Source: Antedon mediterranea
Lineage: Eukaryota; Echinodermata; Crinoidea; Comatulida; Antedonidae
Length of the DNA: 64,000 nucleotides
NCBI RefSeq assembly: GCF_964355755.1
Contig: NC_092678.1
Location: forward strand, 5,304,922-5,368,921
Reading direction: 5' to 3'
A program made the position numbers and the translations under genes. Under the pieces are notes generated by a model, which did no database searches, had not been told where the DNA came from, and worked only from the letters and a program-made list of their open reading frames with translations. Shown one piece after another: positions 6,101 through 64,000 of the stretch (position 1 is its first letter; every line of letters begins with the position of its first letter).

Positions 6101-9100
6101 ATGAATGGATGACTAGTTGGTGACAAGAACGCTAGTTGGTCATACCCAGTACCGTTTTGATTTTACGATCTGTCGGGAAACCACCTCACAACCATCACGA
6201 CGTAGATAGTACGCGAGCGAAGCGAGCGTACCATCTAGTTTAGACAACTTTAAATATTTGTTATCTCAACATTATATTTGTGTAAATGTTTTGTTTTTTA
6301 CCTTGATGTTGGAAACATTTCCAGAATGGTTTGATATTGGCAATTGTCTCTAAAATGCTATCAAATGACCTGTTATAAAAGAAAACAAAAATATTTCTCA
6401 ATCCTTGTAATCTTTGAATGTATTCATTATATAATTTCATTCATTCAAATGACTATAAAAAACTATAAAATAATTGTGTGTTTAATTCAGCTAACACCAT
6501 GTCTGCAGTATGTTAACTTAAAAAACAGTATAAAATGCTTGTTGGACTTAATGCAAGTGCTTGATATAAAAGCAGAACAAAATAAGTTATCTAACTATTA
6601 TATAGAAAATGACCTTACTTAATTTGTAATTATGTTTATGCTATAAAATATATGTAAATGGAATAACATTAGTAGAAATGTATGTTGAACATAAAAGTAT
6701 GTATTTAGTTGAAAAATAAATTATGTATTTAGTTGGAAAATAAATTATGGATTAAAAAAAAGAAAGAATGTAAATACAGTACTCTAAACATAATATGTTT
6801 AACTGTAAATAAACAAAAAAAGTTAAGTGTTAAAAGATAATAATGAAAAAGATGAACTCAAAAAGAACTGTACTGTAAAATTATATTATGTATTAATGGA
6901 ATAAAAGTGGGATGAACCCACGTAAGACAAAAAGAAAATGACCTTACTTTTTATTAACTTGTTTTTGTGGCTGTAACTGTGGACAAACATCTCCAAGTAA
7001 AGTGCGTACAACCATTGAAATGCTTTCTGATAAACTCTCTAAGCAGTATCCACCCTAATGATAAGAAACATCATCACAGCAACTACACAGGGATTTAGCT
7101 AGTCTAGGGATGGGTGTCAACAAATTATGGGTGAGGGGAAATAAACGGTACTTAGCGGTTTCTTGCGTACTGTGACAAAATTTGTCACAATCATATAGCA
7201 CAATTAAAACTACTAGATGGTACGCTCGCTTCGCTCGCGTACCATCTAGGTCGTGCCCACAGATGGTTCTCGAATACACAGTAATTTCAGCGTAGCAAAA
7301 CTGGCGATTTCAAATGTACGTACCGCAGGACTATAATACATTGTCGTTTACAGAAACGAATAAATAGACACGATGATTTATTTAGTCAACTAAAATTAGC
7401 ACCCTGGGAATTACTTCCGAAGGAGAAACTTATCAAAATGAGTCCAAATTTTTGATTTGGACTCATTTAAAGAAACCAATTTGTGTTTTGTATGTAACAT
7501 TAGGGTTGAGGGATGGGAAAGCAGATAGGTACAAAGAGGAACAATTTTTAAATATATTCTTTATCCACTCAGTAACGAAATATTTTTTTCGTGTTTTATA
7601 GGCCTATAAATAATATACCTCTAAATACAGTAAAACATTTGCGATTTAATACTTTGTTAAAACTGTCACTGTCATAATCGATTGAAATATTAAAGTACAT
7701 GTCACGATACACCACTACGACATTTATTTTATTGGTAATTATTAATTAATACAAACGTTGAGAAGGAACTGTCAGTATAAAGTGTATTTGTATATAATAA
7801 TGTGTTTATATATCTAACAGTAGATCCTAACCACAATCTCAGTAATAAAGTTTATCTGTATATATTTTTATATTACATCTAACAGTACGAACATTCACAG
7901 TAAGATATGTTCGATTCAAATGAGGACTAAAAATAGTTAATAGGTATTTACAGTATTGTCAAAGTATTGCAATTTTATTCTCAAAGGGCCCATATATTTA
8001 CCTAACATATGTGTTAAACCAAGGGCTCATAAATTTACCTACTTGTGTTAAACCAAACTCTGGCAGACTGAGAGATTGGGATGTTCCATTCAGCGCAAAT
8101 CAATACATTTGTATAATCATATATTAAATCTATCAAAATAGTATTTTTTTAAGAAAATCGGCCTGTCTTCAACATTATGATGGTGTACTCTAGCTGTTCA
8201 ACCGTTTTCAGCTATTAAAAACAATTATCGTAGGAGGAGATAGGAAAATGCGAAGCCTCCTCGCATTTTTGTGGCGGGTATTTTTCAAGATGGACATCCA
8301 TTAGACAGTGTATACCACGATCGGAAAACACCCCTATTTGGGGCAAATCGTTGAACCTAAATTCGTTTTAATTGTCAATAACTAATTATCTAACTTAATT
8401 TAATTAGTAAACAGGGTTACATCAGGTGGTTAAAACCAGTACCGAAAGTACGAACCAACTTTATATACCATCGAGTAAAAATTCTAGAAGTAAGGCGCGA
8501 TTTACCGAATTTTGCCCTTACGTAAATTTATATATAGATGAGTACATAAGGTGGATTTGAACCCAGGTTCTGTCTTTATGGACAACTATAACTTAAAACT
8601 TAAAAGTGCTTTTATGATGAACTTATGGTTGACCTAAATGTTGAAGGGTTACTCACCTCTAAAGCACAGCAGACTTTGCCATCTGCTAGGCCCATTATCA
8701 TGCTCATCAGATGAGCATAACATGCTGGGCTAACTCGCATGAAACCCTACACCAAAAAAAAGCATGTAATATAATACTTAATAGTCCATATAATTTAAAC
8801 AGATCTCTATCTACTAATATTAAATGGAGTAAGTGCAGAATCTGTTTCGGCTTCAGGCTTTACTCACTCTTTATTATTCATTGGTGCCCAAATAGTGCCC
8901 AAATATTATTATTACTTAAAATAATTACTTTATTTTAAAGATACCTTTTCTCAATATTGTTTCTTAAACTTTAGAAGCTAGACAGCTCTGTAATTTTTAC
9001 AAATTTTAAATCGGCAAATTAGAATGTCATACCTCTGGATCGCCAATTGATGCATCCACTCCACACGCTACTAAAACCAGTTGCGGATTGTACTAAAAAG

Positions 9101-49000: not shown

Positions 49001-51256
49001 TCTCAGAGAGTAAGATGTAATTGTAAAAAGAAAAACCTGTTCTAATCAGAGTATTGCAAAAGTAATTTATTTTTGTATTTTATTTTAAAAGTTATAGGAT
49101 TCTTAAGTAACTTAAGAGTCTCAGGTATATCACGCCAAAGTTCAACCCCTTTACTAACTAAACTTAATGATTTTTGAGTGGTTCTTTTAAATTGTGGGTA
49201 GAAATGGTGTTTTTGTCGCGTGTATTTATCGTGGACAGCTGAGCATAAATGAAATTATTTTGAACAATCACTGGGAGTAAGTTATGAAAAGCTTTATGCA
49301 TTAGAGAAACGGTATATAGTTTTATTAAATTATAAAGATCAAGAGTTTTAAAAAAATTAAAAATTGGTTTACTTGGACTGGTGTATGGGACTTTCATAAC
49401 AAGTCTGAGTGCCTTTTTTTGTAATATGTATAAACAATTTAAATTAGTTTTAAAGGTATTACCCCAGACTTCACAACAATATGTAAAATAAGGCAAAACT
49501 AATGAATTATATAATTTAAATAAAGCTGATGTATTTAGTAAATGTTTTACTTTATAAATAATTCCAATACTTTTAGAAATTTTGGAATGAATATATTCAA
49601 TATGATACTTCCAATTTAGTTTTCCATCAATAATACTGTAACTCCTAAAAACTTTATTTTATTTACCCGTTCAATTGCAACACCACTAATAACTAAATTG
49701 GTTGGTTCATAATTGTTTTTGCGACTAAAAACAATATACTTTGTCTTACTATGATTCAACGTCAATTTATTTACCTTAAACCAAGTATCAATTTTTTTTA
49801 GCTCATCATTAATAATATTACAGATACATTGCAGGTTCTTACCAGAAAAAAGTATATTTGTATCATCAGCATAAAGCGTGTATTTCAATAGGGAAGAAGC
49901 ATTACAAATGTCATTAATATATAAAAGGAATAAAGTGGGCCCCAAAATAGATCCCTGTGGGATGCCACATAAAATGTCTGCTAATTCTGAGGTGGTATCA
50001 CCACGTATTGTCACAAATTGTTTTCTGTTAGAAAGATAATTTTGGATCCATTTATTGGCAATTCCACAAATACCATAAGCTTCAAGTTTTTTTATAAGGA
50101 TATTGTGGTCGATGGTATCAAACGCCTTTTTTAAGTCAATAAAAATTCCGATTGTATAGTTAGACCTATCCATCTCTTTAAGTATATACTCGGAAAAGTG
50201 AAGCAATGCATGGCTAGTGGACATATTTTTCCTAAAACCAAATTGTCCTGGGGCGGATTGCTATAAAACAGTCTTAACTAATGGTCTTAACTCCCCGATT
50301 AAAGACGGCTTTATCTGATAGACGGTTTTACTAAAGCCACCCCTGTTAGACCATTGCTATAAAACAGTCTTAGATAAGACCGCGTAAAGTAACAAATTGA
50401 GGGCGTACTTTGCGCGTAGAATACCAAATAAGGTAATGTTCGTCACGCTTGTTAAATTCACAATCATAACAGTACGTACATTTCTACGCAAGAAAATCTA
50501 TTCTAGGGCTATATAAGAATAAAATCACCGTTATTATTTGATTTAACACTTAAAACTCGTTCTATTGGTTGTCTTTGACGATAAATAATACGTAAAAGCA
50601 ACAAAAAGAAAGGTTTAAGACTGTTTTAAGAATCCTTCGAGTAGGCTTTAATTTTAGAGACCGTTTACAGGTTAGACCGCGGTATAGCAATGGTCTATAA
50701 AATAAGACTACTTGCTACGTCACGAATTATAGCCGGCTAAGCGCTAAGACCGGTTATAGACTGCTTATAGCAATCCGCCCCTGAGTATAGAATATTAAAT
50801 TTGTCAATAAATTTCAAAAGACGGTTGTTAAATAATTTTTCAAAAATTTTAGAAAATTGGGGCAGCATTATTAATAATACTTTAATTGTTTTAGGAAATG
50901 GTTATTAAAAGCCTAGATGTCTACATTTAATAGTCAGCTTCTTCTCAGTCCCCAATCTAAAAAGTGAACCTAGGCTAGGCCTCGACTAGTTTGTTGAGCG
51001 GCTGATAGCTGCTCAGCCAGTCTCGCTGGCGATCGAAATGAATGGTATTGCTAGCTAGGCCTACTAGGCTAGACCTAAGCTAGAAAACATAATTTAGATT
51101 ATCCTACCCGTCGCTCACTTGCTGTAATTCAACTTTCTTCTGACTTTGAAGTAGTATGCTTACATAATGTCGTATTATTCCAACAAAAAATGTTATAAAA
51201 ACGATGGGCAAAACAACCCAAACTCTAATATTTGAGTCCAAAAGTAACTCAGCCAT
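46028..51256 (-). CDS. EMC3: ER membrane protein complex subunit 3
   Basis: Core subunit of the ER membrane complex, which inserts transmembrane segments into the ER membrane; distant relative of the YidC/Oxa1 insertases. Exons 51256-51108, 48551-48494, 48215-48119, 47593-47489, 47032-46871, 46730-46645 and 46144-46028 join in phase to 257 residues, close to the 261 of the human protein. The protein starts [20 protein letters not shown] (first membrane helix). Diagnostic stretches are [52 protein letters not shown] and [20 protein letters not shown]. The C-terminus is divergent but in frame, ending KDKYI and a TGA. No missing exon. It is divergent to, and about 1.7 kb from, the DED gene at 52932. 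Confidence 0.95.
46255..46440. repeat. Imperfect tandem duplication, about 100 bp
   Basis: CCCCGGGGGTGGCCGTTATT...GCGAAAACAACAAG followed by TCGTGTCAGG is repeated as CCCCCGGGGAGTCGCCGTTA...GCGAAAACAAAAAA and TCGCGTCAGG. Located in the last EMC3 intron. Confidence 0.75.
48760..50905 (-). mobile_element. 5'-truncated non-LTR retrotransposon (CR1/L2-like LINE), interrupted
   Basis: Reverse transcriptase segments in EMC3 intron 1, same strand as EMC3. In order: [19 protein letters not shown] (about 50880-50790), [51 protein letters not shown], the catalytic YADD in [10 protein letters not shown], then after a frameshift near 49620 the tail [14 protein letters not shown] and [17 protein letters not shown]. 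Defects: 5' truncation, the frameshift, and a 530-bp MITE inserted in the RT. Not mobile. Confidence 0.88.
50251..50780. mobile_element. MITE nested in the LINE, CTG target duplication
   Basis: 530 bp with perfect 16-bp inverted ends GGGCGGATTGCTATAA / TTATAGCAATCCGCCC, flanked by CTG at 50248-50250 and 50781-50783. Removing it and one CTG restores continuous RT coding sequence ([12 protein letters not shown]), so the insertion is precise and younger than the LINE. A second TTGCTATAAAACAGTCTTA lies inside at about 50353. The three-base duplication suggests a Harbinger-like transposase source, but CTG is not the usual TWA. Confidence 0.9.
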
Positions 51257-52931
51257 TCGCTCTTTTCTTTTTTCAATCGACGAAAGAGAGGAGAAAACAA
51301 ATAACCACACACACACGAATTTAGGTCTAAACTATAGAGTACGCTGTTTGATCTAAAGTGTGACACGCCAAATATGCATTACAGTTTTCCTTTCCTACAA
51401 ACTTGTTTATCATGAACATGTATTGTAAACTCACACAAATGCAGCATCACCTACAGCGGCGCGGAAACGGGTCGGGAAGAGGGGAGGCTGGTCAGGGAGA
51501 GCAACTGATCTCCCAAAATAAGTAAGCTAAAAATGACACAAATTTCTTTGATATTCTTTTCAACATTAGTCTTAGCTCGTTTCGCAATACAAACATGCGT
51601 GTCAAAAACAGCCTTTACACGATAGGCTAATCTAGAACATTTTAATGCAAAAGTTCTCCGTTAATGTGTTATGAATGTTTTAGTAACTTGGCATCTGAAA
51701 ATAATATGGTCATTATTTGGCTACGCTTTGTTCATATTGTGTCATTCATCGTGAAAAAGGCGTATTTCTAGTGGAATTATTCGCGACCCTGAACCTCTAT
51801 CATATCAAAATATCCCGGCGGTCGGATCCAGTAGCGATTGCTTTGCGCTACCATTTTTGAAAGTCAAAATTAGATACAAAAACAAAAATAGACACGCCTC
51901 CGTACACTGATGATGCGCAAAGGGAGCGAAACAGAGCCAGACTGTCTGCCTCCTTAATATTATTAGTCCGCCGTATCAGAAATCCTGCTGGACCGTCACC
52001 GACTCCCTTCGGTCTCGAATTTGAGCGCCATTTCTATGACGGAGTTGCTGCATGGCCCCAACGGGAAATGTTTGTATTTATTTTTCGTGTAGGGTGTCAT
52101 TTTCGGGCCAACTAGACAAGAGTCATTTTATCATGAAATGTATGTGAAAGTTAAGTACCATTTCCAACCATCTATGTGTCATTTGCCTAAAATTGCCGAG
52201 TCCGAGCCCCCATCCCCTATTTAAAGATCTAGGATATACCCCTGAACCCTCAAACACAAACTCCCCCCTCCACCCCCACCCGACTTCACCAAAGACACAT
52301 TATTTTACAAACCCTAGTATCCTCTTTCTAAAATCTTAGATGAAATGTATTAAAAAGTGTAACAGACAAATAAGCGTAGTCCCTCTCCTTCACGAAATTG
52401 TAGGCCTATTTATGATAATAGCAATACGACTTTATCAAGAACGGACGCGATATCCACAATGTAAAACCCCTGAAGCAACAACAATATCGTAATGTTGTAT
52501 TTATTCAAACTGGGGTCATGCGTGCTTTCTATTATATGCATAATATGCATATCAATAATATTAAACGGTTAACCAATGATCAACTACTTCCTGAAATATA
52601 TAGGCCTAAAAATGAAGCGCCATTCAACGGATGGTATCCTCTTTCAGAAAATATTGTAGATTTAGCTTTAAAAAGAATATAATATAGTCTAGTGTAGAAA
52701 ATATAATAATAATAATAATAAATTTTGACTCATACAGCGCATAATGTATAATCCTCAATGTGCTTACAATAATTTTTAAAAATAACAAGATATGTAGATT
52801 AAAATACAAAAATAATAATAATGGAATAATTGTGGAAATGTCGTCATACAAAACCGTTATCAATTCACCCGTAACAATTACTGATACTTTGGCAGCGATC
52901 TTGATCGGTAGATAAAGACAAACTGCACAAA
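51257..52931. promoter_or_regulatory. Divergent promoter region between EMC3 and the DED gene
   Basis: Head-to-head spacer. It is more GC-rich near 51780-52080, including GCGCCATTTC at about 52025 (YY1-like). From about 52335 onward the sequence is nearly duplicated upstream of the second DED gene (60822-61398), so it probably includes that gene's promoter. No coding sequence seen. Confidence 0.5.
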
Positions 52932-52998
52932 ATGTCGGCTTCCGTAAGTATACAGTTTTGTATTTACCATTCGGGCCTACTAATGCATTAGTTGGTGT
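52335..52998 (+). repeat. Duplicated 5' segment, copy A
   Basis: Matches 60822-61462 with high identity and small indels: GTAACAGACAAATAAGCGTA, GTCCCTCTCCTTCACGAAAT, TATATGCATAATATGCATAT and so on through the MSAS start exon. It defines the upstream part of the tandem duplication that created the two DED genes. Confidence 0.85.
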
Positions 52999-55900
52999 AT
53001 AGATCAATCTACACTAACATGATTTGCACATAAAGTTATCACTTTGCTAATAATGATTATATTAATACTATATATTAATCTGGGTGGGGCACGTACGTTC
53101 GATGCGCTGTATGATGAGGGTAAAAGAACGGTTTCTTTGGTCTATGGTTTATGGTGTTCTAAAAAAAATTTACTCCTATAATTGAATTCATCCTGATGAT
53201 GGTACAGCATTAATCATGTTTTTTTTTCTTCCTCTTATTTACACATATAAAATATAAGATTGTAAATAAAGCATATCAAGGAAAGGGCTGAAAAGTTCAA
53301 CCCCTTAACATTAAAAAATAGTTAATAAATAATAATTTAAGGGCTATTTTTCTAACAATTACTATACAGTACATAAAACATTTTTTAAACAAACTTTCTC
53401 TTCGAATATATAATTCTCTTGTAGAAATAAATAAATATATTAAGAAACAAATGTGTTTTTTTGTTAAGAAACCTTAAATCATCTGTGATATAATTTAATA
53501 GCTTTGTTCCAGAATACCTGATATAATGCTGTCCTATATTATTTCTATATTTTGGTATATATACACATTTTCTCTTTGAAAGATCATTAAAAAACAACTG
53601 CAATCCATGTTTTTCAAAACAAAATACGACTTTAAATCGATAAAATAAAGAGCAATATCGAAAAACTAATTAATTTAGTTGTTAATTTGTGTTTGGTATT
53701 TCTAGATAGGAAGATCACTAATTTATTGTTTTTATTATTCAACATCCTAATGATAAGAAATAAATACAAACGACGCTAGTGTACCGTAATTACCAAGGTA
53801 TATTTCTTTTAATTCACTATTTCAGAAAGACTTTAATGACTTGCTTTATAATGTAAGCCGTAAATACGAAGGAAGCAAATTGAAGGAGCTAAGATTTCTG
53901 CTGAATGACCATTGTGATGGATCGACGTTGGCTGATAAACACGGAGGAGCATTCGATTTGTTTCGTGAACTCGAAACCAAAGGTTATATTTCAAATGATC
54001 CTACAGATGTAGAGATTTTGCTAGACACTGCGGAGGAAACCGAAACGGCTGATGCTTCAAAATTAATCAAAGCTTTTAAAACGAAGTATCCAAACATGGA
54101 GACAGGCTACGAGTATACAAAGAATAATCAAATAACACCATTTCGCAAAAAACTTCTAAAAGTTATAAAGAAAAATACAAATGGGGTACAATCTATGGCT
54201 GTCATTTACAAGCTAGGACATGTTCCGTTTGATAGTAAATGGGATTTCATTTTCAGACTTGAGAAGGATTGTAAACTGATTAACACACCAGACTCACTGA
54301 AAGAATTTGCAAAATGTTTGTCTGAAAATGCGTCAAAAATACTTCTCGGTATGTGACGTGTAAACATTATTTAATGACAAGTTAGAGAATAGTTTCAGTT
54401 TATTTATATTTACCAACATACAGTGTAATCATGATTTTTAACAATACAGTAATAACTTGTGGCAAGTAGAATTGGATACTGAAAAGACCCGGTAACCATT
54501 GTGATTACCCAATACTGAAATTAGAAAAATCATTCATTGTTATTTTGTGCAGATGATTATTGATAGGATTAATTAACCATAATATGGTGGGATTGCATTA
54601 TTATTGGAATCTTTTTCAAAAAACACATTTTATGCAAGTGTATACAATATTTAAACTTATTGTTTCAGGTACATCGCAGCCAGGTACATCGCAGTCAGGT
54701 ACATCGCAGTCAGGTACATCGCAGCCAGGTGCATTGCAGCCAGGTACATCGCAGCCAGGTACATCGCAGCCAGGTACATCGCAGTCAGGTACATCGCAGT
54801 CAGGTACATCGCAGCCAGGTGCATCGCAGTCAGGTACATCGCAGCCAGGTACATCGCAGTCAGGTACATCGCAGTCAGGTACATCGCAGTCAGGTACATC
54901 TACGGAATCTCCAAACACTACTAGAGACGGAGGCGCAAGTCAAGAAGGTAGAAATACACATCAATACACGTACAACTTTAATATTTATTATTTATTGGTA
55001 TAAAAATTCATTTATTAATATACAATTTTTGGCTTCTACAATTGTTTCAGGTACATCTAAGGAATCTCCAAACACTACTAGAGACAGAGGCGCCAGTCAA
55101 GAAGGTAAAAATAAAAAGTGTCAATGTTTACCATATTTTACACAATAATTGCCTTTTAAAATAATTTCTTCAAACTTTCCTATTTCTGTAATTTCTTTTT
55201 TTATTTAAATAAATTAATTTAATTCAGCTTTTTCAATTTCTATAAAATAAGAAGCTTAACTATATCACAAATATCTATATAATGGTTTTTTTCTCAAAAT
55301 CAACCAATCTTGCTAAAACTATTCATAGACACAGTGTAGATGATGATACCTCATAAACACTCACCATTGAAAATTAATTATTTATTCGTCATTTCAGATG
55401 AGACTGATAACCCAGGTGCTGCAACAAGTACTACACCTATGGTAATAAACGATACGGATAGGTATAATAACATAGCATAAAGCTACATAATGTGTATATG
55501 TTAATGTGTACTTCGTTAATCTTTGATTACCTTTTGAGTGCAATGTTTCGTATTTGCTATATGCGATATTTTATGTTTAACTTCAATGTTTTTATATAAT
55601 AAATTGCGATAAAAAAGTATACTAAACAAGTTAATAAGGTAATCCCACACAAAACTATCAGATCTTGTATAATTCCCATGGTGTTCTAATTATGTCTACT
55701 ACACATTAACACTGGCGAAGGCAAAGAAAGACGTCCCTATATATTTTTGTTAACCCCAAGAGTTTGCCCAAAAATTGATCTGCACCGTATTTTTAGTTAT
55801 ACTAACATGTAACTAATTTTATGACAGAATGTTGCCTGCCTGTTGTAGTCTTTTTCCATGGCCATCTGGGGATCAAAAGAAGAGTTTGAAGGTTAAACAT

Positions 55901-58900
55901 TAGTTTTTAAACAAATTGCCAGAGTACGTGTTTAATGCTAATGGTTTTTATTTTATGAATAGGAAACCTCCATTTGAAATAAGACAACTGAACGGGATTA
56001 AAAAATTGATCGAAGGTAATTTTCAACTAACAATACACAATATAAAATATATGTAAATGTGAAACATTATATTACAAATCCAAAGGCAAATTATAGAAAA
56101 TAATGACAATGCTGTGGGTATCAGTGGCTGGATCTCAATGGAGATACAAAAAACAAGGCCATATACATGGCTGAAGTCGCGTGCTCAAGTTAGTGTTTAC
56201 CGACCAACCGACCGACATAGTGAGCTGTATAGTCGCGTTGCACGCGACTAAAAAAGCGAAAAGTAAAACAGCCAGAAAAGTTAGCAGAGCCCTTCATCAG
56301 TGCATTAATTATATGAATTATATGAACTAGATGGCACGCTCGCTTCGCTCGCGTACCATCTAGGGGTGCTCACAGATGGTTCTCGAATACAGTAGAATCC
56401 ACGGACGGGGACTTTTTTGGGACACTAAACAAAAACGGAAGTGTCCCCCTAATTGGGGTATTCAGAAATAGAGACAACAAAACCAATACTGGATTCCATA
56501 AAGGACAATTAATTTATGTGGATTAAAGAAATTAGGGAGAAATGGAAATGTATGTACGGGAATTGGGCGGCACGTGGTGGTGGTGATGGAACCGCAGTAA
56601 TAAAGTTGATTGTATTTATATATTATAAGAACCAAACTAAATAAATAGACCTAGACATTCTGCGAAATGGAAATCGGAAATTCAAGCTCCTATTCAGTGA
56701 AAAATTAAACTGTAGTCTACCTAAATATTTAGGGCAAATCATCGGTTGTGGTGTTGAAATTCCTGTAAACATTTGTGTGAACCAAACTGGGTCGAATTTC
56801 TGTCATGAGTACTGATTTGTTGGCCTGTGATTTATGACGCCTAAGGGATCTATCTAGACTTATTTTTTAGAATAATGTACGTACCTGTCAGATACAATTG
56901 TCTTGTGTCGTATAATAAATAAGTACTGTAATAGTTACTGAAGTTACTATTACAATCTCGTCAATGAAAACACGAAAATGTATATGCACTTACTTATGAA
57001 AACGTATACAGTATTATACTCAGTTATTGAAACAGTAGGTTTAAAAAAGTTTCGTTTGTCTGTAAAATGATGTAATCAAGCTGTTTACACGAGTCTTAAT
57101 TTATAAGCACATCAATAATAAAATAGTTTATCTATCCTGTAATTGGCGAGATTATGGTCGCTGTTGAATGAAATAAAGCCAATCGGTATCATATTTGTAC
57201 AGAAACGTTTTCGCGGCCGAAGGGTGTAATACCTAAATTCGTTGTATTATCGTCAAGAACTAACTGTAACTAAACTTACATAGAAAGTAGGGTATCATAA
57301 ATTTGGCCTTAGCACTCGGGGGAGTGGCTAAGATGAAGTCCGTGGGACTACTAAATATAAATTGTAATGAACCTCGAGGGACATAAATAGGAATATTTCA
57401 TGTTTCATTATCAATGTATAATAAATGGAAACTGTTTACCGATTCAAATAATAGAAATTGGTTTTTAACATTTTCCGAACCTATTGCAAGTTTATTCTCA
57501 AAGGGCCCATATATTTACCTACCGTATGTGTTAAACCAAGGGCTCATAAATTTACCTACAGTACTTGTGTTAAACCAAACTCTGGCAGACTGAGAGATTG
57601 GGATGTTCCATTCATCGCAAATCAATACATTTGTATAATCGTATATTAAATCTATCAAAATAGTATTTTTTAAAGAAAATCGGCCTGTCTTCAACATTAT
57701 GATGGTGTACTCTAGCAATCTATCAAAATAGTATTTTTTAAAGAAAATCGGCCGGTCTTCAACATTATGATGGTGTACTCTAGCTGTTCAACCGGTTTTC
57801 AGCTATTAAAAACAATTATCGTAGGAGGAGATAGGAAAATGCGAAGCCTCCTCGCTATGTAACATTAGGGTTGAGGGATGGGAAAGCGGATAGGTACAAA
57901 GAGGAACAATTTTTAAATATATTCTTTATCCACTGAGTAACGAAATATTTTGTTCATGTTTTATAGGCCTATAAATAATATACCTCTAAATACAGTAGGC
58001 CTAAAACATTTGCGATTTAATACTTTGTTAAAACTGTCACTGTCATAATCGATTGAAATATTAAAGTACATGTCACGATACACCACTACGACGTTTATAT
58101 TTTTGGTAATTATTAATTAATACAAACGTTGAGAAGGAACTGTCAGTATAAAGTTTATTTGTATATCTAACAGTAGAGCCTATCCACAGTCTCAGTAATA
58201 AAGTTTATATTTTTATATTACATCTAACAGTAGGAACATTCACAGTAAGAAATGTTCGATTCAAATGAAAAATAGTTAATAGGTATTTACAGTATTGTCA
58301 AAGTATTGCAAGTTTATTCTCAAAGGGCCCATATATTTACCTACCGTATGTGTTAAACCAAGGGCTCATAAATTTACCTACAGTACTTGTGTTAAACCAA
58401 ACTCTGGCAGACTGAGAGATTGGGATGTTCCATTCATCGCAAATCAATACATTTGTATAATCGTATATTAAATCTATCAAAATAGTATTTTTTAAAGAAA
58501 ATCGGCCTGTCTTCAACATTATGATGGTGTACTCTAGCCGTTCAACCGGTTTTCAGCTATTAAAAACAATTATCGTAGGAGGAGATAGAAAAATGCGAAG
58601 CCTCCTCGCATTTTTTTGGCGGGTATTTTTCAAGATGGACATCCATTAGACAGTGTATACCACGATCGGAAAACACCCCTATTTGGGGCAAATCGTTGAA
58701 CCTAAATTCGTTTTAATCGTCAATAACTAATTATCTAACTCAATTTAATTAGTAAACAGGGTTACATCAGGCGGTTAAAATCAGTACCGAAAGTACGAAC
58801 CAACTTTACATACCATCGAGTGAAAATTCTAGAAGTAAGGCGCGATTTACCGAATTTTGCCCTTACGTAAATTTATATATAGATAAAAATTACTACATAT

Positions 58901-59479
58901 ATCTATTATTCTGGAATTCTATTCTGAAGTAATACGTTTCCAATTTAAGAATCATTTTTAAATGTATTCACAATTTCAGTTTATATTCCATAAAATAGAT
59001 AACAATATAAATTATTTTATGGATAGATGATCACAAAATTGAAGACCAAAGTTTGAAAAAAATATACTACGCGTTATGAACATTCACAACAACTTCATTT
59101 TGAAATACCTCGGACAAAAATCTTTCTTTTTATTTCAGATCATAAACAGTGGTTTCAACTATGTTGGTGTGGTTCAGGGATCCTGTTGATAATTACATTT
59201 GTCGTAGAATTTGTGATCATTTATCGTACTTCTTCAATAGCGGGACCTATAGTTGTTTTAACCATTTCTATACTACTATTTTTAGTTTTTATTATCTTGT
59301 CGTTCATTCTTGGTGGAGATTATGCAAAATGTATCGGTTTTATTGCAACAGTTGTAACCATAATACCAACTTGCTTTGCGTTATATTTCTTGGCGAATGA
59401 GATAGCACGTAATAATAGTAACGAAGGTATAACAACACATTTACCGTCGATGTCTAATGAAACAACTGTGGTTAAGTAA
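52932..59479 (+). CDS. Membrane-anchored tandem death-effector-domain protein, copy A
   Basis: Predicted exons 52932-52943 (MSAS), 53826-54348, 54669-54947, 55051-55104, 55398-55461, 55963-56015 and 59139-59479; all GT-AG, phases agree, 441 residues. Residues 6-85 resemble a DED (LLYNVSRKYEG, LKELRFLLNDHC, AFDLFRELETKGYI), comparable with FADD and caspase-8, but no clear RxDL motif. Residues 105-178 look like a second DED (WDFIFRLEKDCKLI, DSLKEFAKCL). Then 15 PGTSQ-type pentapeptides (179-253), a Ser/Thr linker, and three hydrophobic helices near 340-357, 364-386 and 393-412. There is no signal peptide, so the DEDs should face the cytosol. Likely an adaptor in death or innate immune signalling (inference). 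The MSAS exon is supported by identical placement in copy B. Confidence 0.78.
53220..53620 (-). pseudogene. LINE 3' fragment in intron 1 of DED gene A
   Basis: Minus-strand frame contains GQHYIRYSGTKLLNYITDDL and then FLNIFIYFYKRII. This matches the usual RYxGPKxWNxIPxxL...FKKxLK end of LINE ORF2 proteins. It is absent from the matching intron of copy B, so it inserted after the duplication or was lost from B. Confidence 0.5.
54669..54893 (+). repeat. 15-bp coding VNTR (PGTSQ linker)
   Basis: 15 perfect-length units of GGTACATCGCAGCCA / GGTACATCGCAGTCA, each giving GTSQP or GTSQS, with two variants (GALQP, GASQS). Every unit junction reads CAG|GTACAT or similar, which resembles both a splice acceptor and a donor; the exon's own acceptor is one of these. 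Copy B has only about four units. Unit length divisible by three keeps any length change in frame. Confidence 0.95.
57484..57855. repeat. Partial copy of the 1.05-kb dispersed repeat
   Basis: Same sequence as 58310-58600 and 7966-8268 (TTTATTCTCAAAGGGCCCAT, ACTCTGGCAGACTGAGAGAT, TCGTAGGAGGAGATAGGAAA). It contains a small internal duplication of about 60 bp (CTATCAAAATAGTATTTTTT). It is fused head to tail to the full copy at 57856. Confidence 0.85.
57856..58885. repeat. Dispersed repeat, about 1.03 kb, copy 2
   Basis: High-identity copy of 7491-8539, from TATGTAACATTAGGGTTGAG to ACGTAAATTTATATATAGAT. Small indels only (for example 58150-58265 is shorter). It shows that the family is dispersed across unrelated introns. 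Confidence 0.88.
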
Positions 59480-61398
59480 CAGCCATAACATTTGTCGTAA
59501 CTCAAATGTAACTAAATAAGATATAATACAAGAATAGATAGTAATTTGTAGGGATAGAAGGTCTACAGAAACAATCAATTACCGATCTTATGTAATGTAA
59601 GTCACTGGATACTGGCACACAAGTATAACATTCACCTTTGTGCACACTCTAACTATCAACAACAATGGTTGGATTGCATTATTTGTTCTTAATATCTCTT
59701 GGTAATAGTAATTGCTGTTTGTTCATGATTTCTTTTTGTGATATTTCATTATGCTTAAAGTAATTATGTTATAAAAAATGTATTTATAGTTTAGTGCGTT
59801 TTGTAGTTTTTATTTTTTATAGGCTTGTAATAAATAATATCAGCTTGCAGTGTACTTTAACTTTGACTACAATAGGCCTAAATGCTTTCTCGAATCAACT
59901 CTGTTGTAAGTAGAAGTGGGTCTATTACTTCTACAAAGGGTAATAAAATAAAAAATAATGATAAAAACCTAAAACCTGCCCCGAAACTACTAGTCCAGCG
60001 TGGGTGGATTAAAATTATACCTTTCAGCAAGAAATATTTATATTGCACTTTAAAAAAGGGATGGTATAGAAACATCTGATAGCTTGATAAAAGATGATTT
60101 TTGTATACAGTTTTGAAAATATTAAAAGATTAAGTAATATTGGACCATTAAGGAAATTCTATTCATATCGGTTATAAAATGGAATGGACCTGGTATCATA
60201 TTTATGTATCCTAGTTATGAAACGAGTCAGTCTAATAATTAGACACATTGGATTACAAGATAATAAATAAGATGGCGTCTAATAAATCTTACTTTGTCCT
60301 TATTTTGTCTTCAGGATCTCTTATCAGTCTATACAAAATGGGGAAACAGAAAAAGTACTTTTCTAATTAAATTTCAAAAAGTTATATTGGCTTTTATGAT
60401 AGTATGAACAACAAAATAGGCTTGGACACGATTTTACGATTTTACAATGCAGTACTGTGCATGCATTGATAACTGTCAATAATAAGGGCAAAAACAAAAA
60501 CTTTAACAAATGTGAAGTAAATTCCTCAAAGACGCCATACTTGTTTTTATGGTAATAATATACTAGTCAAATATAGCCCTATTAATGTGCATAAAAAACA
60601 CCAGCCATAAAGTAAAAGAGGCACAATTATAAACAGTATTGAAAAATAACTATATATTATAAAATACAATATTATTCGTTCATAAAATTAAGTACGTTAT
60701 TATTATTATTATTATTATTATTATTTAAGATTATTATTCTTATTATAATCAGACAATTGAAGAGGGAATGCTCAACATCAAGTACATAAGCTGTTGCACT
60801 ACGTTTCTAAAAAAAAACAAAATCTTAGATGAAAGTGTAACAGACAAATAAGCGTAGTCCCTCTCCTTCACGAAATGGTAGGCCTATTTATGATAATAGC
60901 AATACGACTTTATCAAGAACGGATCACGCGATATCCACAATGTAAAACCCCTGAAGCAACAACACTATCGTACTGTTGTATTCACAATTGTTCAAACTTG
61001 GGTAATGCGTGTCTTTCTATTATATGCATAATATGCATATCAATAACAGTAAACGGTTAACCAATGATCAACTACTTCCTGAAATATATATAGGCCTAAA
61101 AATGAAGCGCCATTCAACGGACGGTATCCTCTTTCTAGAAAATATTTTAGATTTAGGTTTAAAAAAAAAATAATATAGCCTAGTCTAGATAATATAATAA
61201 TAAATAATTTGGACTTATAAAGCGCATAATGTATAATCCTCAATGTGCTACACAATAATAATGGAATAATAATAATGGATAATTGTGGAAATGTCGTCAT
61301 ACAAAACCGTTATCAATTCACCCGTAACAATTACTTACTTTGGTAGCGATCTAGTATGCAAATATCATTGATCGGTAGATAAAGACAAACTGCACAAA
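59480..61398. other. Spacer between DED genes A and B
   Basis: 3'UTR and intergenic sequence. A possible polyadenylation signal AATAAA is at 59829, about 350 bp after the stop. A 65-codon frame at 59882-60079 has no recognised features. An ATT microsatellite lies near 60695-60725. From 60822 the sequence duplicates 52335-52998. Confidence 0.55.
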
Positions 61399-61462
61399 AT
61401 GTCGGCTTCCGTAAGTATACAGTTTTGTTATTATTTACTATTTGGGCCTACTAATTATATTT
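60822..61462 (+). repeat. Duplicated 5' segment, copy B
   Basis: Counterpart of 52335-52998, including the exon ATGTCGGCTTCC followed by GTAAGTATACAGTTTT. Shorter in the ATAATA stretch and with scattered indels. Confidence 0.85.
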
Positions 61463-62806
61463 GGTGTATAGATTAATCTACAAAACAAAAATATAAAGGT
61501 AAAGGTAAAGGTAAAGGTATTCATATTTGTCCTCAAGCTTAACTGGAAACTGAGGAAATTCGGATTAGGCCCTCACATAAATTATTCATTTGAAATTTGG
61601 GTGGGGCACGTATCTTGGGCGCGTTGGTTCCATTCTTCATTTTTTTGCTGTCGACCTCTTTCCTGTTATTTAACTTCTCCTGGTGAAAAGATCATAACAA
61701 CATTGCATACTACAGATATGTCGATAATTTCTTCAAAAGAAAATAAGATTTAAATAGACAAAATAAAGAAAAACATAATTAAAAACTATTGAATTGAGTT
61801 GATTTTTGTTTTGATAGCAATGTTTTCTATACTAGGCCAATACCATTGTCAATATTGCGCGGTACTCAGATGGGAAGATCACTAAACTTATTTCCTAATT
61901 AATTATTCATGATAAGAAAATAATTCCTAAAAACGATCTCGGTGTAATTGCTAAAGTATATCTTTAATTCACTATTCCAGAACAACTTTGATGACTTGCT
62001 TTTTGATGTAAGCCGTATATACGAAGGATACAAATTGAACGAGCTAAGACTTCTACTGAATAAGCGCTGTGATGGAGCGACGTTAGCTGAAAAACGCAAC
62101 GGAGCACTGAATTGGTTTCGTGAACTCGAAGCCAAAGGTTATATTTCTAAGGAACCTACAGATGTAGAAATTCTGTTGTCGTTGCTAACGAAACAGAAGT
62201 GACTGACGCCGTATCCTTAATAGACGATTATATAAAAAAACATCCAAACAAGAAGGAAAACGTTACGAAGGGCCTACCAATCACACCATTTCGGAAAAGA
62301 CTTCTAAAAGCTGCAAAAGCAAACCAGAGGGATGTACAACTTATGTCTCCTGCCTACAAGAAGCTCCAAAATATAAAATTTGACAATATTTTTGATTTCA
62401 TTTTTAAACTTGAGCAAGGTTGTGAACTGGAGGAGGAGAACCCAGACACAATAACAAAGTTTGCAAAATGTCTGTCAGAAAATGCTTCAAAAATACTTCT
62501 CGGTAAATATTATTTAATGACAAGTAAGAGAACAATAATACAAAAATAGAGTAATAAAAACTTATGGCATTTAGGTATGGAATTGAAATTGATATAGAGA
62601 GTTGGCATAACCAGAATGAACAACAAGTAGAATTGGATACTGAAAAGAACCGGTAGCTATATTACCCAATACTGAAATTAGAAAAATCATTTCCTTGTTA
62701 TTTTGTGATAATTATAATTCATATGATTAATTCAATAGAATAACCATAATATCGTGGGATTGCATTATTATAGGAATCTTTTTAAAAAACAAGGCCAACA
62801 GCCATT

Positions 62807-62905
62807 AAGTCGCGTGCTAGAATGCATAGTGATACCGGACCGACAGACAGACCGACCGACCGACCGACATAGTAAACTATAGAGTCGCGTCCACGCGACT
62901 AAAAA
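62807..62905. mobile_element. Small inverted-repeat element with GACC/CCGA tract
   Basis: AGTCGCGTGC on the left and GCGACT on the right enclose a CCGACAGACAGACCGACCGA simple repeat. A related element is at 56173-56255 in copy A's intron 6. Located in intron 2 of copy B, where copy A has none. Confidence 0.65.
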
Positions 62906-63236
62906 CATGCATTTGATGCAAGTGTATACAATAGTTAAACTTATTGATTCAGGTACATCGGAGCCAGCTACATCGCAGTCAGGTACATCGCAGTCGGGTA
63001 CATCGCAGCCAGGTAGGCCTACGTCTACGGAATCTCCAAATACTACTAGAGACAGAGGCGTAGAAGGTAAAAATAAAAAGTGTCAAATTACCTTGAATTA
63101 CCTTCAAATGTTTTACACAATAATTGCCTTTTAAAATAATTTCTTCAAACTTTCATATTGCTGTAATTTCTTTATTTACTTAAATAAATTAATTTTATTT
63201 AAAAAAATTAATTCTCTTCTCCGTCTCAGAACGTAC

Positions 63237-63461
63237 GTGGCGGAGAAGAAGGTAACATTCGAATACTACTATAGTTTTCAGTCAATAATCCAACCTGCTC
63301 TTATCGGGTCCTTAATATTTATCAGACAATCTTTCTTTAACAAGTTCAAGCGAATTTATTTATATAAACGCTACCTGAAACAATTACCAACAATAATACA
63401 TGGAATAGTTGACCATTGCTTCAATCTTATCGATAATGTGGAAAACAAGGAGATCATTTGA
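63237..63461 (+). other. Open segment of unknown nature in DED gene B intron
   Basis: 75 codons beginning GTG (VAEKKVTFEYYYSF), rich in Ile, Phe and Lys, preceded by a pyrimidine-rich CCGTCTCAG acceptor-like site at 63220-63229. It has no counterpart in copy A. It could be a fragment of an inserted element or an extra exon, but no family is recognised and no donor clearly fits. Confidence 0.25.
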
Positions 63462-64000
63462 AAACTATGATCTTGATAATATTAAAAACGTCATTCCTAT
63501 TAGGCCTACTGTAATTTTATTGTGATTTATTTAGGCCCCAATTAGTTCAATTAAATTATTCGAAATAATTAATTCAGCCTCAGAATATCTAGTGATTTCT
63601 TCAGTATTACACAATCGTCTGATTTTTTCAAAATTACTTTCTTTAAGACAGTGTATATAATTACACCCTCACCATTAAAATAAATTTCATTTGTCATTTC
63701 AGATGAGCCTGATAACGCAGCTGTTGCCACAAGTACTACACCTATGGTAATACACGATAGGTATAACTAACATAGCATTATGCTATAGTAAACAATTATT
63801 AGGGTAATCCCACACAACTAAACCGTTATATGTTACTTATGTTGCACTTATTTACAGGAGGTTATACAAATTATTATATTAATTAAATAAATCATTATTT
63901 AGGGGGAGACCTACAATACGCGCTATGGTTTGTAAAACCTAAGTTGTCCGAAAGTGAAATTACTACATAGTATTTTCATATCCAGTTGAGCCATATAATA

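What the first reader, a model, noticed from the sequence alone, without database searches (positions are those of the whole stretch)
52932..59479. Predicted membrane-anchored tandem-DED protein with a pentapeptide-repeat linker
Seven predicted exons join in phase to 441 residues: two DED-type domains, a 15-unit PGTSQ linker, and three C-terminal membrane helices with no signal peptide. Known DED proteins (FADD, caspase-8/10, cFLIP, DEDD, PEA15) are soluble. I know of no DED-DED-repeat-3TM protein, so this could be an undescribed receptor-proximal or organelle-anchored death-fold adaptor. Family assignment rests on pattern similarity read by eye.
Basis: partly seen in the sequence, partly recalled or inferred. 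Interest (0 to 1): 0.85.

Follow-up and report, generated by a model that had tools for sequence, protein, structure and literature searches.

The report
Membrane-anchored death-effector-domain gene family
In an unnamed animal genome, a gene joins a protein-docking domain of the kind used in cell-death signalling to a three-helix membrane anchor; five neighbouring copies share the design, within a very large family in which the same front end is followed by different back ends.

Summary
The seven-exon gene is real in sequence: all exons join in phase to 441 residues. The first domain is a death effector domain (DED): Pfam E 7.2e-8 for the piece, 33 bits, under the curated 35.9; profile-profile probability 98.1% against 15 DEDs of the same genome. 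The second 'DED' is unproven: probability 0.4%, Pfam DED in 1 of 57 members at E 0.13, one weak structural match to a caspase-8/cFLIP DED assembly (Z 3.0). The DED-to-membrane join is well supported without RNA. The six membrane-exon matches at E <= 1.5e-5 lie 1.3-5.3 kb downstream of DED exons, same strand, in one array; 6 of 6 keep a phase-1 TTTATTTCAG acceptor; none has an ATG before its first helix. The DED exon has at least 149 copies, followed by NACHT, TRIM-like, filamin-NHL or membrane exons. DED expansions with variable tails, some membrane-linked, are published (PMC8195603), so this is a new variant of a known kind. The likely role, inferred, is a membrane-tethered DED docking platform in innate immunity.

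The parts
52932..52943 (+). exon 1, MSAS, start codon; no signal peptide
   Evidence: the same 12 bases followed by gtaagt recur in copy B at 61399-61410
53826..54348 (+). exon 2, phase 0 in, phase 1 out: the constant module of the family
53826..54089 (+). death effector domain (residues 5-92)
   Evidence: Pfam DED 7.2e-8, 33 bits, under the cut-off; HHalign 98.1%; lacks the RxDL motif
54120..54347 (+). second conserved helical domain (residues 103-178), unassigned; possibly a diverged DED
   Evidence: 57-row alignments A2, A5; HHalign 0.4%; VIA-align Z 3.0 to a caspase-8/cFLIP DED assembly
54669..54947 (+). exon 3: 15 GTSQP/S-type repeats plus TESPNTTRDGGASQE
55051..55104 (+). exon 4, near-repeat of the end of exon 3
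55398..55461 (+). exon 5 (DETDNPGAATSTTPMVINDTD)
   Evidence: counterparts in copy B and, by eye, in L015
55963..56015 (+). exon 6 (KPPFEIRQLNGIKKLIE)
   Evidence: the region aligns to copy B at 69% identity; a motif search found it in no other member
59139..59479 (+). exon 7: membrane exon and stop codon
59159..59224 (+). membrane helix 1 (approximate)
   Evidence: hydropathy
59240..59311 (+). membrane helix 2 (approximate)
   Evidence: hydropathy
59330..59398 (+). membrane helix 3 (approximate); the C-terminal tail after it holds NNS and NET sequons
61399..61410 (+). copy B exon 1
61981..62502 (+). copy B DED exon, with a one-base frameshift near 62181
62953..63066 (+). copy B linker exon with about 4 repeats
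63703..63760 (+). copy B exon 5; its exon 6 region and membrane exon lie beyond the window end

Best explanation
It is a protein-coding gene of an animal innate-immunity type family. The protein has an N-terminal death effector domain, a second helical domain, a flexible Ser/Thr/Gln/Gly/Pro linker and three C-terminal membrane helices, probably with the N-terminus in the cytosol and the C-terminus outside or lumenal. I think it works as a membrane-tethered docking platform: the DED pairs with DEDs of partners (DED-NACHT sensors, DED-TRIM proteins or the two-DED caspase of the same genome) and concentrates them at a membrane, much as MAVS does with a CARD (MAVS is recalled). Shown here by sequence: gene structure, identity of the first domain, recurrence of the architecture, a large family in which the DED exon is followed by different exons. 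Inferred: that all these exons are spliced together, topology, partners, membrane identity and the signalling role.
For: In-phase seven-exon model. DED by Pfam, by PDB profile search and by HHalign; four modules of the family pass Pfam's own cut-off in the genome scan (C10:20257167, C8:13490919, C10:20330213, C10:20339550). The 6 membrane-exon matches at E <= 1.5e-5 all lie downstream of DED exons in one array, with the same phase-1 acceptor in 6 of 6 and no ATG before helix 1 in 6 of 6. Copy B aligns in the same order along the gene. Topology hints: 5 of 6 N-flanks of helix 1 are net positive and one is neutral; every sequon found (4 of 6 sequences) is in loop 1-2 or in the C-tail, both lumenal if the N-terminus is cytosolic. 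dN/dS is below 1 in 7 of 8 comparisons, which are not independent. The genome holds a caspase domain at C2:9118468 about 6-7 kb from two DEDs on the same strand (9124736, 9125305). Of 149 DED modules, 27 are followed within 12 kb on the same strand by a scored NACHT, against 4 preceded by one.
Against: No RNA or protein evidence. The RxDL motif, seen in 10 of 15 chosen DEDs of this genome, is in domain 1 of 0 of 57 family members, so canonical DED contacts may be missing. The window domain scores under Pfam's cut-off (33 bits; 32.4 bits). The second domain is unassigned. dN/dS of 0.57-0.68 between A and B is weak constraint, and one membrane-exon pair gives 2.69. Copy B has a frameshift, so part of the array may be decaying. 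The loop between helices 2 and 3, cytosolic in this topology, has no net charge in 4 of 6. The DED-exon donors of L016 and L019 were not examined. No partner was tested.
Confidence: 0.5

Rival explanations
1. The three-helix part is itself the effector: clustering of the DEDs assembles the helices into a membrane-disrupting oligomer, so the protein is an executor of cell death rather than an adaptor.
For: The membrane exon stands where other members have NACHT or filamin-NHL exons. [quoted passage not shown] The membrane exon has no Pfam match at E <= 0.01.
Against: No amphipathic or pore feature was tested; three ordinary hydrophobic helices suffice for anchoring.
Confidence: 0.15
2. A decoy or brake: a DED without a catalytic partner that sequesters DED proteins at a membrane, in the manner of cFLIP (recalled).
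For: No enzymatic domain found; the RxDL motif is absent; many copies with divergent sequence.
Against: Nothing specific was found in its favour over a platform.
Confidence: 0.15
3. The gene model is a false fusion: the DED exons and the membrane exon belong to different genes, or the locus is a decaying copy.
For: A 3.1-kb intron separates exons 6 and 7; copy B has a frameshift; no RNA data; about 57% of the array lies within 6 kb downstream of a DED exon, so position within the array alone says little.
Against: Six recurrences with conserved phase and acceptor; in L015 the gap is only about 0.8 kb; no ATG before helix 1 in any of 6; copy B in the same order.
Confidence: 0.08

Closest known systems
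Lineage-specific DED + TRADD-N expansions with variable tails (PMC8195603; section 11 and passages seen)
   Same: Constant module with a DED, many copies, variable C-terminal domains including TRIM and STAND NTPases, a low-complexity linker in the amphioxus members; the Crassostrea virginica members have a transmembrane helix.
   Different: Here the second constant domain is a different, helical one: no TRADD family is among the 25 families shown (39 and 33 matched in all), and only 2 PF20694 matches pass E 0.001 in the genome. The membrane part is a C-terminal three-helix module instead of an N-terminal receptor.
Caspase-8 / cFLIP tandem DED
   Same: Caspase-8 is the best death-fold match of the family profile, some chains aligning into the second domain.
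   Different: No caspase domain; RxDL absent; second domain not confirmed as a DED; membrane-anchored.
BAP31 / BAP29
   Same: Membrane-bound half (PMC3742741, abstract passage; three helices is recalled) and a region called a variant DED.
   Different: [quoted passage not shown] the order of parts is reversed.
MAVS (recalled, no call)
   Same: N-terminal death-fold domain, long linker, C-terminal membrane anchor.
   Different: CARD instead of DED; one helix instead of three.
Amphioxus hybrid death-fold genes (PMC2575513, passages)
   Same: DED-NACHT and other shuffled combinations.
   Different: No DED with a C-terminal membrane module in the passages seen.

Membership tests
Death effector domain (PF01335), domain 1 | sequence profile of the six-helix DED | tested here: met
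   Pfam 7.2e-8 for the 98-aa piece, but 33 bits, under the curated 35.9; 45 of 57 members match DED at E <= 0.1; HHalign 98.1% over 81 columns; four other family modules pass the cut-off
Death effector domain (PF01335), domain 1 | RxDL motif of canonical DEDs (motif recalled) | tested here: not met
   0 of 57 members in domain 1; 10 of 15 chosen DEDs of the same genome have it. So: a DED homologue of a derived branch, not a canonical DED.
Tandem-DED class (second domain as a DED) | second DED detectable by profile or fold | tested here: inconclusive
   HHalign probability 0.4%; Pfam DED in 1 of 57 at E 0.13; low-confidence model (pLDDT 63), VIA-align Z 3.0 to 8ym6_I, Foldseek nothing at E <= 0.001
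DED + TRADD-N expansions | TRADD-N domain after the DED | tested here: not met
   window module: only DED at E <= 0.1 and no TRADD match in its second domain at E <= 1; 2 genome-wide PF20694 matches
Caspase-8/10 | Peptidase_C14 domain in the gene | tested here: not met
   no C14 match within C9:5.36-5.49 Mb; DED is the only family at E < 1 in the 441-residue model
Pentapeptide-repeat proteins (PF00805-type, recalled) | A(N/D)LXX repeats | tested here: not met
   Pfam scan of the repeat exon gave CfAFP, GETHR and Extensin_1, all below their cut-offs
Membrane proteins | insertion in a membrane with N-terminus in the cytosol | not testable with these tools
   hydropathy, flank charge and sequon positions only

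The most novel reading that the evidence does not exclude
A class of death-fold executors in which an N-terminal DED module directly gates a C-terminal three-helix membrane-disrupting module: an animal gene family that skips caspases and gasdermins and turns DED clustering straight into membrane damage, produced by swapping tails behind one DED exon.
Probability: 0.12. Interest if true: 0.8.

Novelty: new variant of a known kind. Interest (0 to 1): 0.5.

Why it matters
It adds a DED family with a C-terminal polytopic membrane module and shows one genome with at least 149 copies of a DED module followed by different tails. Two neighbouring genes, C and D, have sister DED exons (support 100/99) but different exons behind them, membrane versus NHL with weak filamin, which makes tail exchange in a death-fold array directly testable. 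It also gives an undescribed conserved domain paired with a DED, where the published expansions have TRADD-N.

Tried and rejected
AlphaFold of the whole module, window rows only: mean pLDDT 45, not used for fold search. The second domain alone: pLDDT 63, pTM 0.49; Foldseek gave nothing at E <= 0.001, and the one VIA-align row with Z >= 2 of 17 chains aligned (Z 3.0) is too weak to claim a fold. Pentatricopeptide-repeat designs top the PDB sequence lists, above caspase-8, but they are sums of weak single-repeat scores and were rejected. NCBIfam gave two matches far under their cut-offs. COX1 was sought to place the organism: no match; a paper search with the genus Antedon found none; the species is left unnamed. 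A TIR reading of the conserved exons in L020, L021 and L023 was considered by eye: no Pfam match and no PF01582 match in the array. The filamin search (150 of 203 candidates scored) did not list the filamin-like exons of this array, so it was not used for counting. The dN/dS of the L016/L019 membrane exons (2.69, Fisher p 0.034, 1 of 8 comparisons) was not taken as positive selection. On the DED tree the membrane label needs 3 changes, so one gain without loss is not supported; it is nevertheless clustered (0 of 500 shuffles as low). L016 and L019 sit on long branches there and copy B is partial. In script 64 the loop 1-2 of L015 was cut at the wrong place and is not used.

The listings of the searches on this question showed me no described DED plus C-terminal three-helix protein; they cover open-licence PubMed Central papers only and I saw titles and abstract starts, plus the three papers named. 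No collection of animal genomes could be searched, so the spread of the architecture is unknown.

Full report
What is there. I rebuilt the gene from the window: seven exons between 52932 and 59479 with AG/GT borders, starting in phases 0-0-1-1-1-2-1, give 441 residues and a stop. The linker carries a 15-bp minisatellite of 15.7 copies. Exon 7 holds three hydrophobic segments.

Is domain 1 a DED? Yes. The 98-residue piece matches Pfam DED at E 7.2e-8 (33 bits, curated cut-off 35.9). With 57 family members aligned (56 modules taken from the loci I had fetched, plus the window), 45 of 57 match Pfam DED at E <= 0.1. An hmmsearch of solved structures lists 35 sequences up to E 10, headed by repeat-protein artefacts, and among them caspase-8 (1.4e-5), FADD (0.049), cFLIP (0.067) and PEA-15 (0.25) in the DED register. 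The N-terminal half of the alignment against 15 DED stretches of the same genome (15 that I chose from the 36 marked over Pfam's cut-off, none from this family) gives HHalign probability 98.1% over 81 columns. Four modules of the family are themselves over the cut-off. The RxDL motif is in domain 1 of 0 of 57, and in 10 of the 15: a derived branch.

Is domain 2 a DED? Unproven. The same HHalign test gives 0.4%. Its profile lists 4 PDB sequences up to E 10, none a death fold. Pfam gives DED for 1 of 57 at E 0.13. A low-confidence model of it (pLDDT 63) has one VIA-align row with Z >= 2 (Z 3.0, 3.6 A over 56 residues), to a caspase-8/cFLIP DED assembly, and no Foldseek match at E <= 0.001. The domain is conserved (2 invariant and 9 nearly invariant columns in 57 rows) and may be a diverged DED. 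In L016 and L019 the match to the window module ends after about residue 116.

Does the membrane exon belong? A genome search with exon 7 gives 7 matches at E <= 1: 6 at E <= 1.5e-5, and one on contig C6 with three stop codons at 0.07. The 6 lie at C9:5364059, 5369411, 5376566, 5399709, 5404950 and 5434991, starting 1.3 to 5.3 kb after the start of a DED exon on the same strand. A second search with a diverged member gives 5 matches, all among these 6. The acceptor TTTATTTCAG in phase 1 is kept in 6 of 6. A phase-1 donor after ILLG was seen in 10 of 11 array genes examined; the eleventh, C, has a possible phase-1 donor about eight codons later (inference), and the donors of L016 and L019 were not examined. 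The open frames of the membrane exon have no ATG before helix 1 in 6 of 6. Copy B aligns in order from 52501 to 59900, including the regions of exons 5 and 6 but not most of intron 6. About 57% of the array lies within 6 kb downstream of a listed DED exon, so position inside the array is not strong by itself; phase, acceptor, missing ATG and the ordered copy carry the argument.

The family. The DED exon query gave 150 matches, 150 of 325 candidates having been scored, so this is a lower bound; 149 after merging the two halves of copy B. They sit on ten contigs, 57 on C4 and 32 on C9. Of 149, 27 are followed within 12 kb on the same strand by one of 103 scored NACHT matches, against 4 preceded by one. 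On C4 at 5.79-6.09 Mb, 3 (L005, L011, L012) of the 8 cluster loci read have RING/B-box-type or filamin-like frames downstream, judged by eye within the 1.5 kb held. In the C9 array, gene D (L014) and L022 have NHL repeats (Pfam 4.6e-10 and 7e-13), and L014 and L020 a filamin match under the cut-off. Genes C and D have sister DED modules (100/99) but a membrane exon and NHL exons behind them. So one exon, with a repeated exit phase, is followed by different tails; that they are spliced together is inferred.

Topology and selection. Helix-1 flanks are net positive in 5 of 6 and neutral in 1; the sequons, found in 4 of 6, are in loop 1-2 or the C-tail; the loop 2-3 is neutral in 4 of 6. This fits a cytosolic N-terminus but is a hint. 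dN/dS is 0.37-0.68 in 7 of 8 comparisons and 2.69 in one. Copy B's DED exon carries a one-base frameshift.

How it probably works (inference). A cytosolic DED module on a flexible leash from a three-helix anchor would concentrate DED partners on a membrane. The genome holds plausible partners: a caspase domain at C2:9118468 about 6-7 kb from two DEDs and DED-NACHT neighbours. The alternatives, membrane effector and decoy, are not excluded.

Comparison with print. PMC8195603 (section 11 and passages) reports marine-animal expansions with a constant DED plus TRADD-N and variable tails, among them Crassostrea virginica proteins with a transmembrane helix and intracellular DED. Here TRADD-like_N (PF20694) has 2 matches at E <= 0.001 of 50 candidates, so the partner domain differs. 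PMC3742741 (passages) removes BAP31 as a true membrane DED. PMC2575513 (passages) gives DED-NACHT in amphioxus, sea urchin and Nematostella. The verdict is a new variant of a known kind.

Noticed in passing
window 61399-64000, continuing beyond the window (L013): A second copy (B) of the gene in the same order, with a one-base frameshift in its DED exon and only about 4 linker repeats instead of 15.
   Followed up: yes
C9:5401433 and 5403524 (L015, L016); C9:5432653 and 5433499 (L019): Two DED modules in a row precede one membrane exon: either two genes or one protein with two modules.
   Followed up: partly
L020:1553-2056, L021:1998-2531, L023:1435-1902: A conserved exon (VVSDD...MVLVGFTSNPMT...) behind DED exons with no Pfam match at E <= 0.01; looks TIR-like by eye only.
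   Followed up: partly
L023:2860-3354: A TRADD-like_N match under the cut-off (21.6 of 23.7 bits, E 1.9e-4) about 2 kb behind a DED exon of the same array.
   Followed up: no
G000 C5:22033627-22136900: Eight Peptidase_C14 matches on one strand within about 100 kb: a caspase-type cluster.
   Followed up: no
G000 C3:17144891, C3:25187799, C4:16658379, C9:14107698: Four pairs of DED matches with identical scores on three contigs, and C14 matches 57-106 kb away, four of them with one identical score: nearly identical dispersed copies.
   Followed up: no
window 49167-50260, minus strand: Reverse-transcriptase-like open frames (YADDTNILF motif), a retroelement fragment, read by eye.
   Followed up: no
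window 57463-57784 and 58307-58600: A stretch of the 3.1-kb intron 6 is repeated within the intron; a related 37-bp repeat lies at 7984-8056. It may be mobile-element sequence and explain the intron's length.
   Followed up: no
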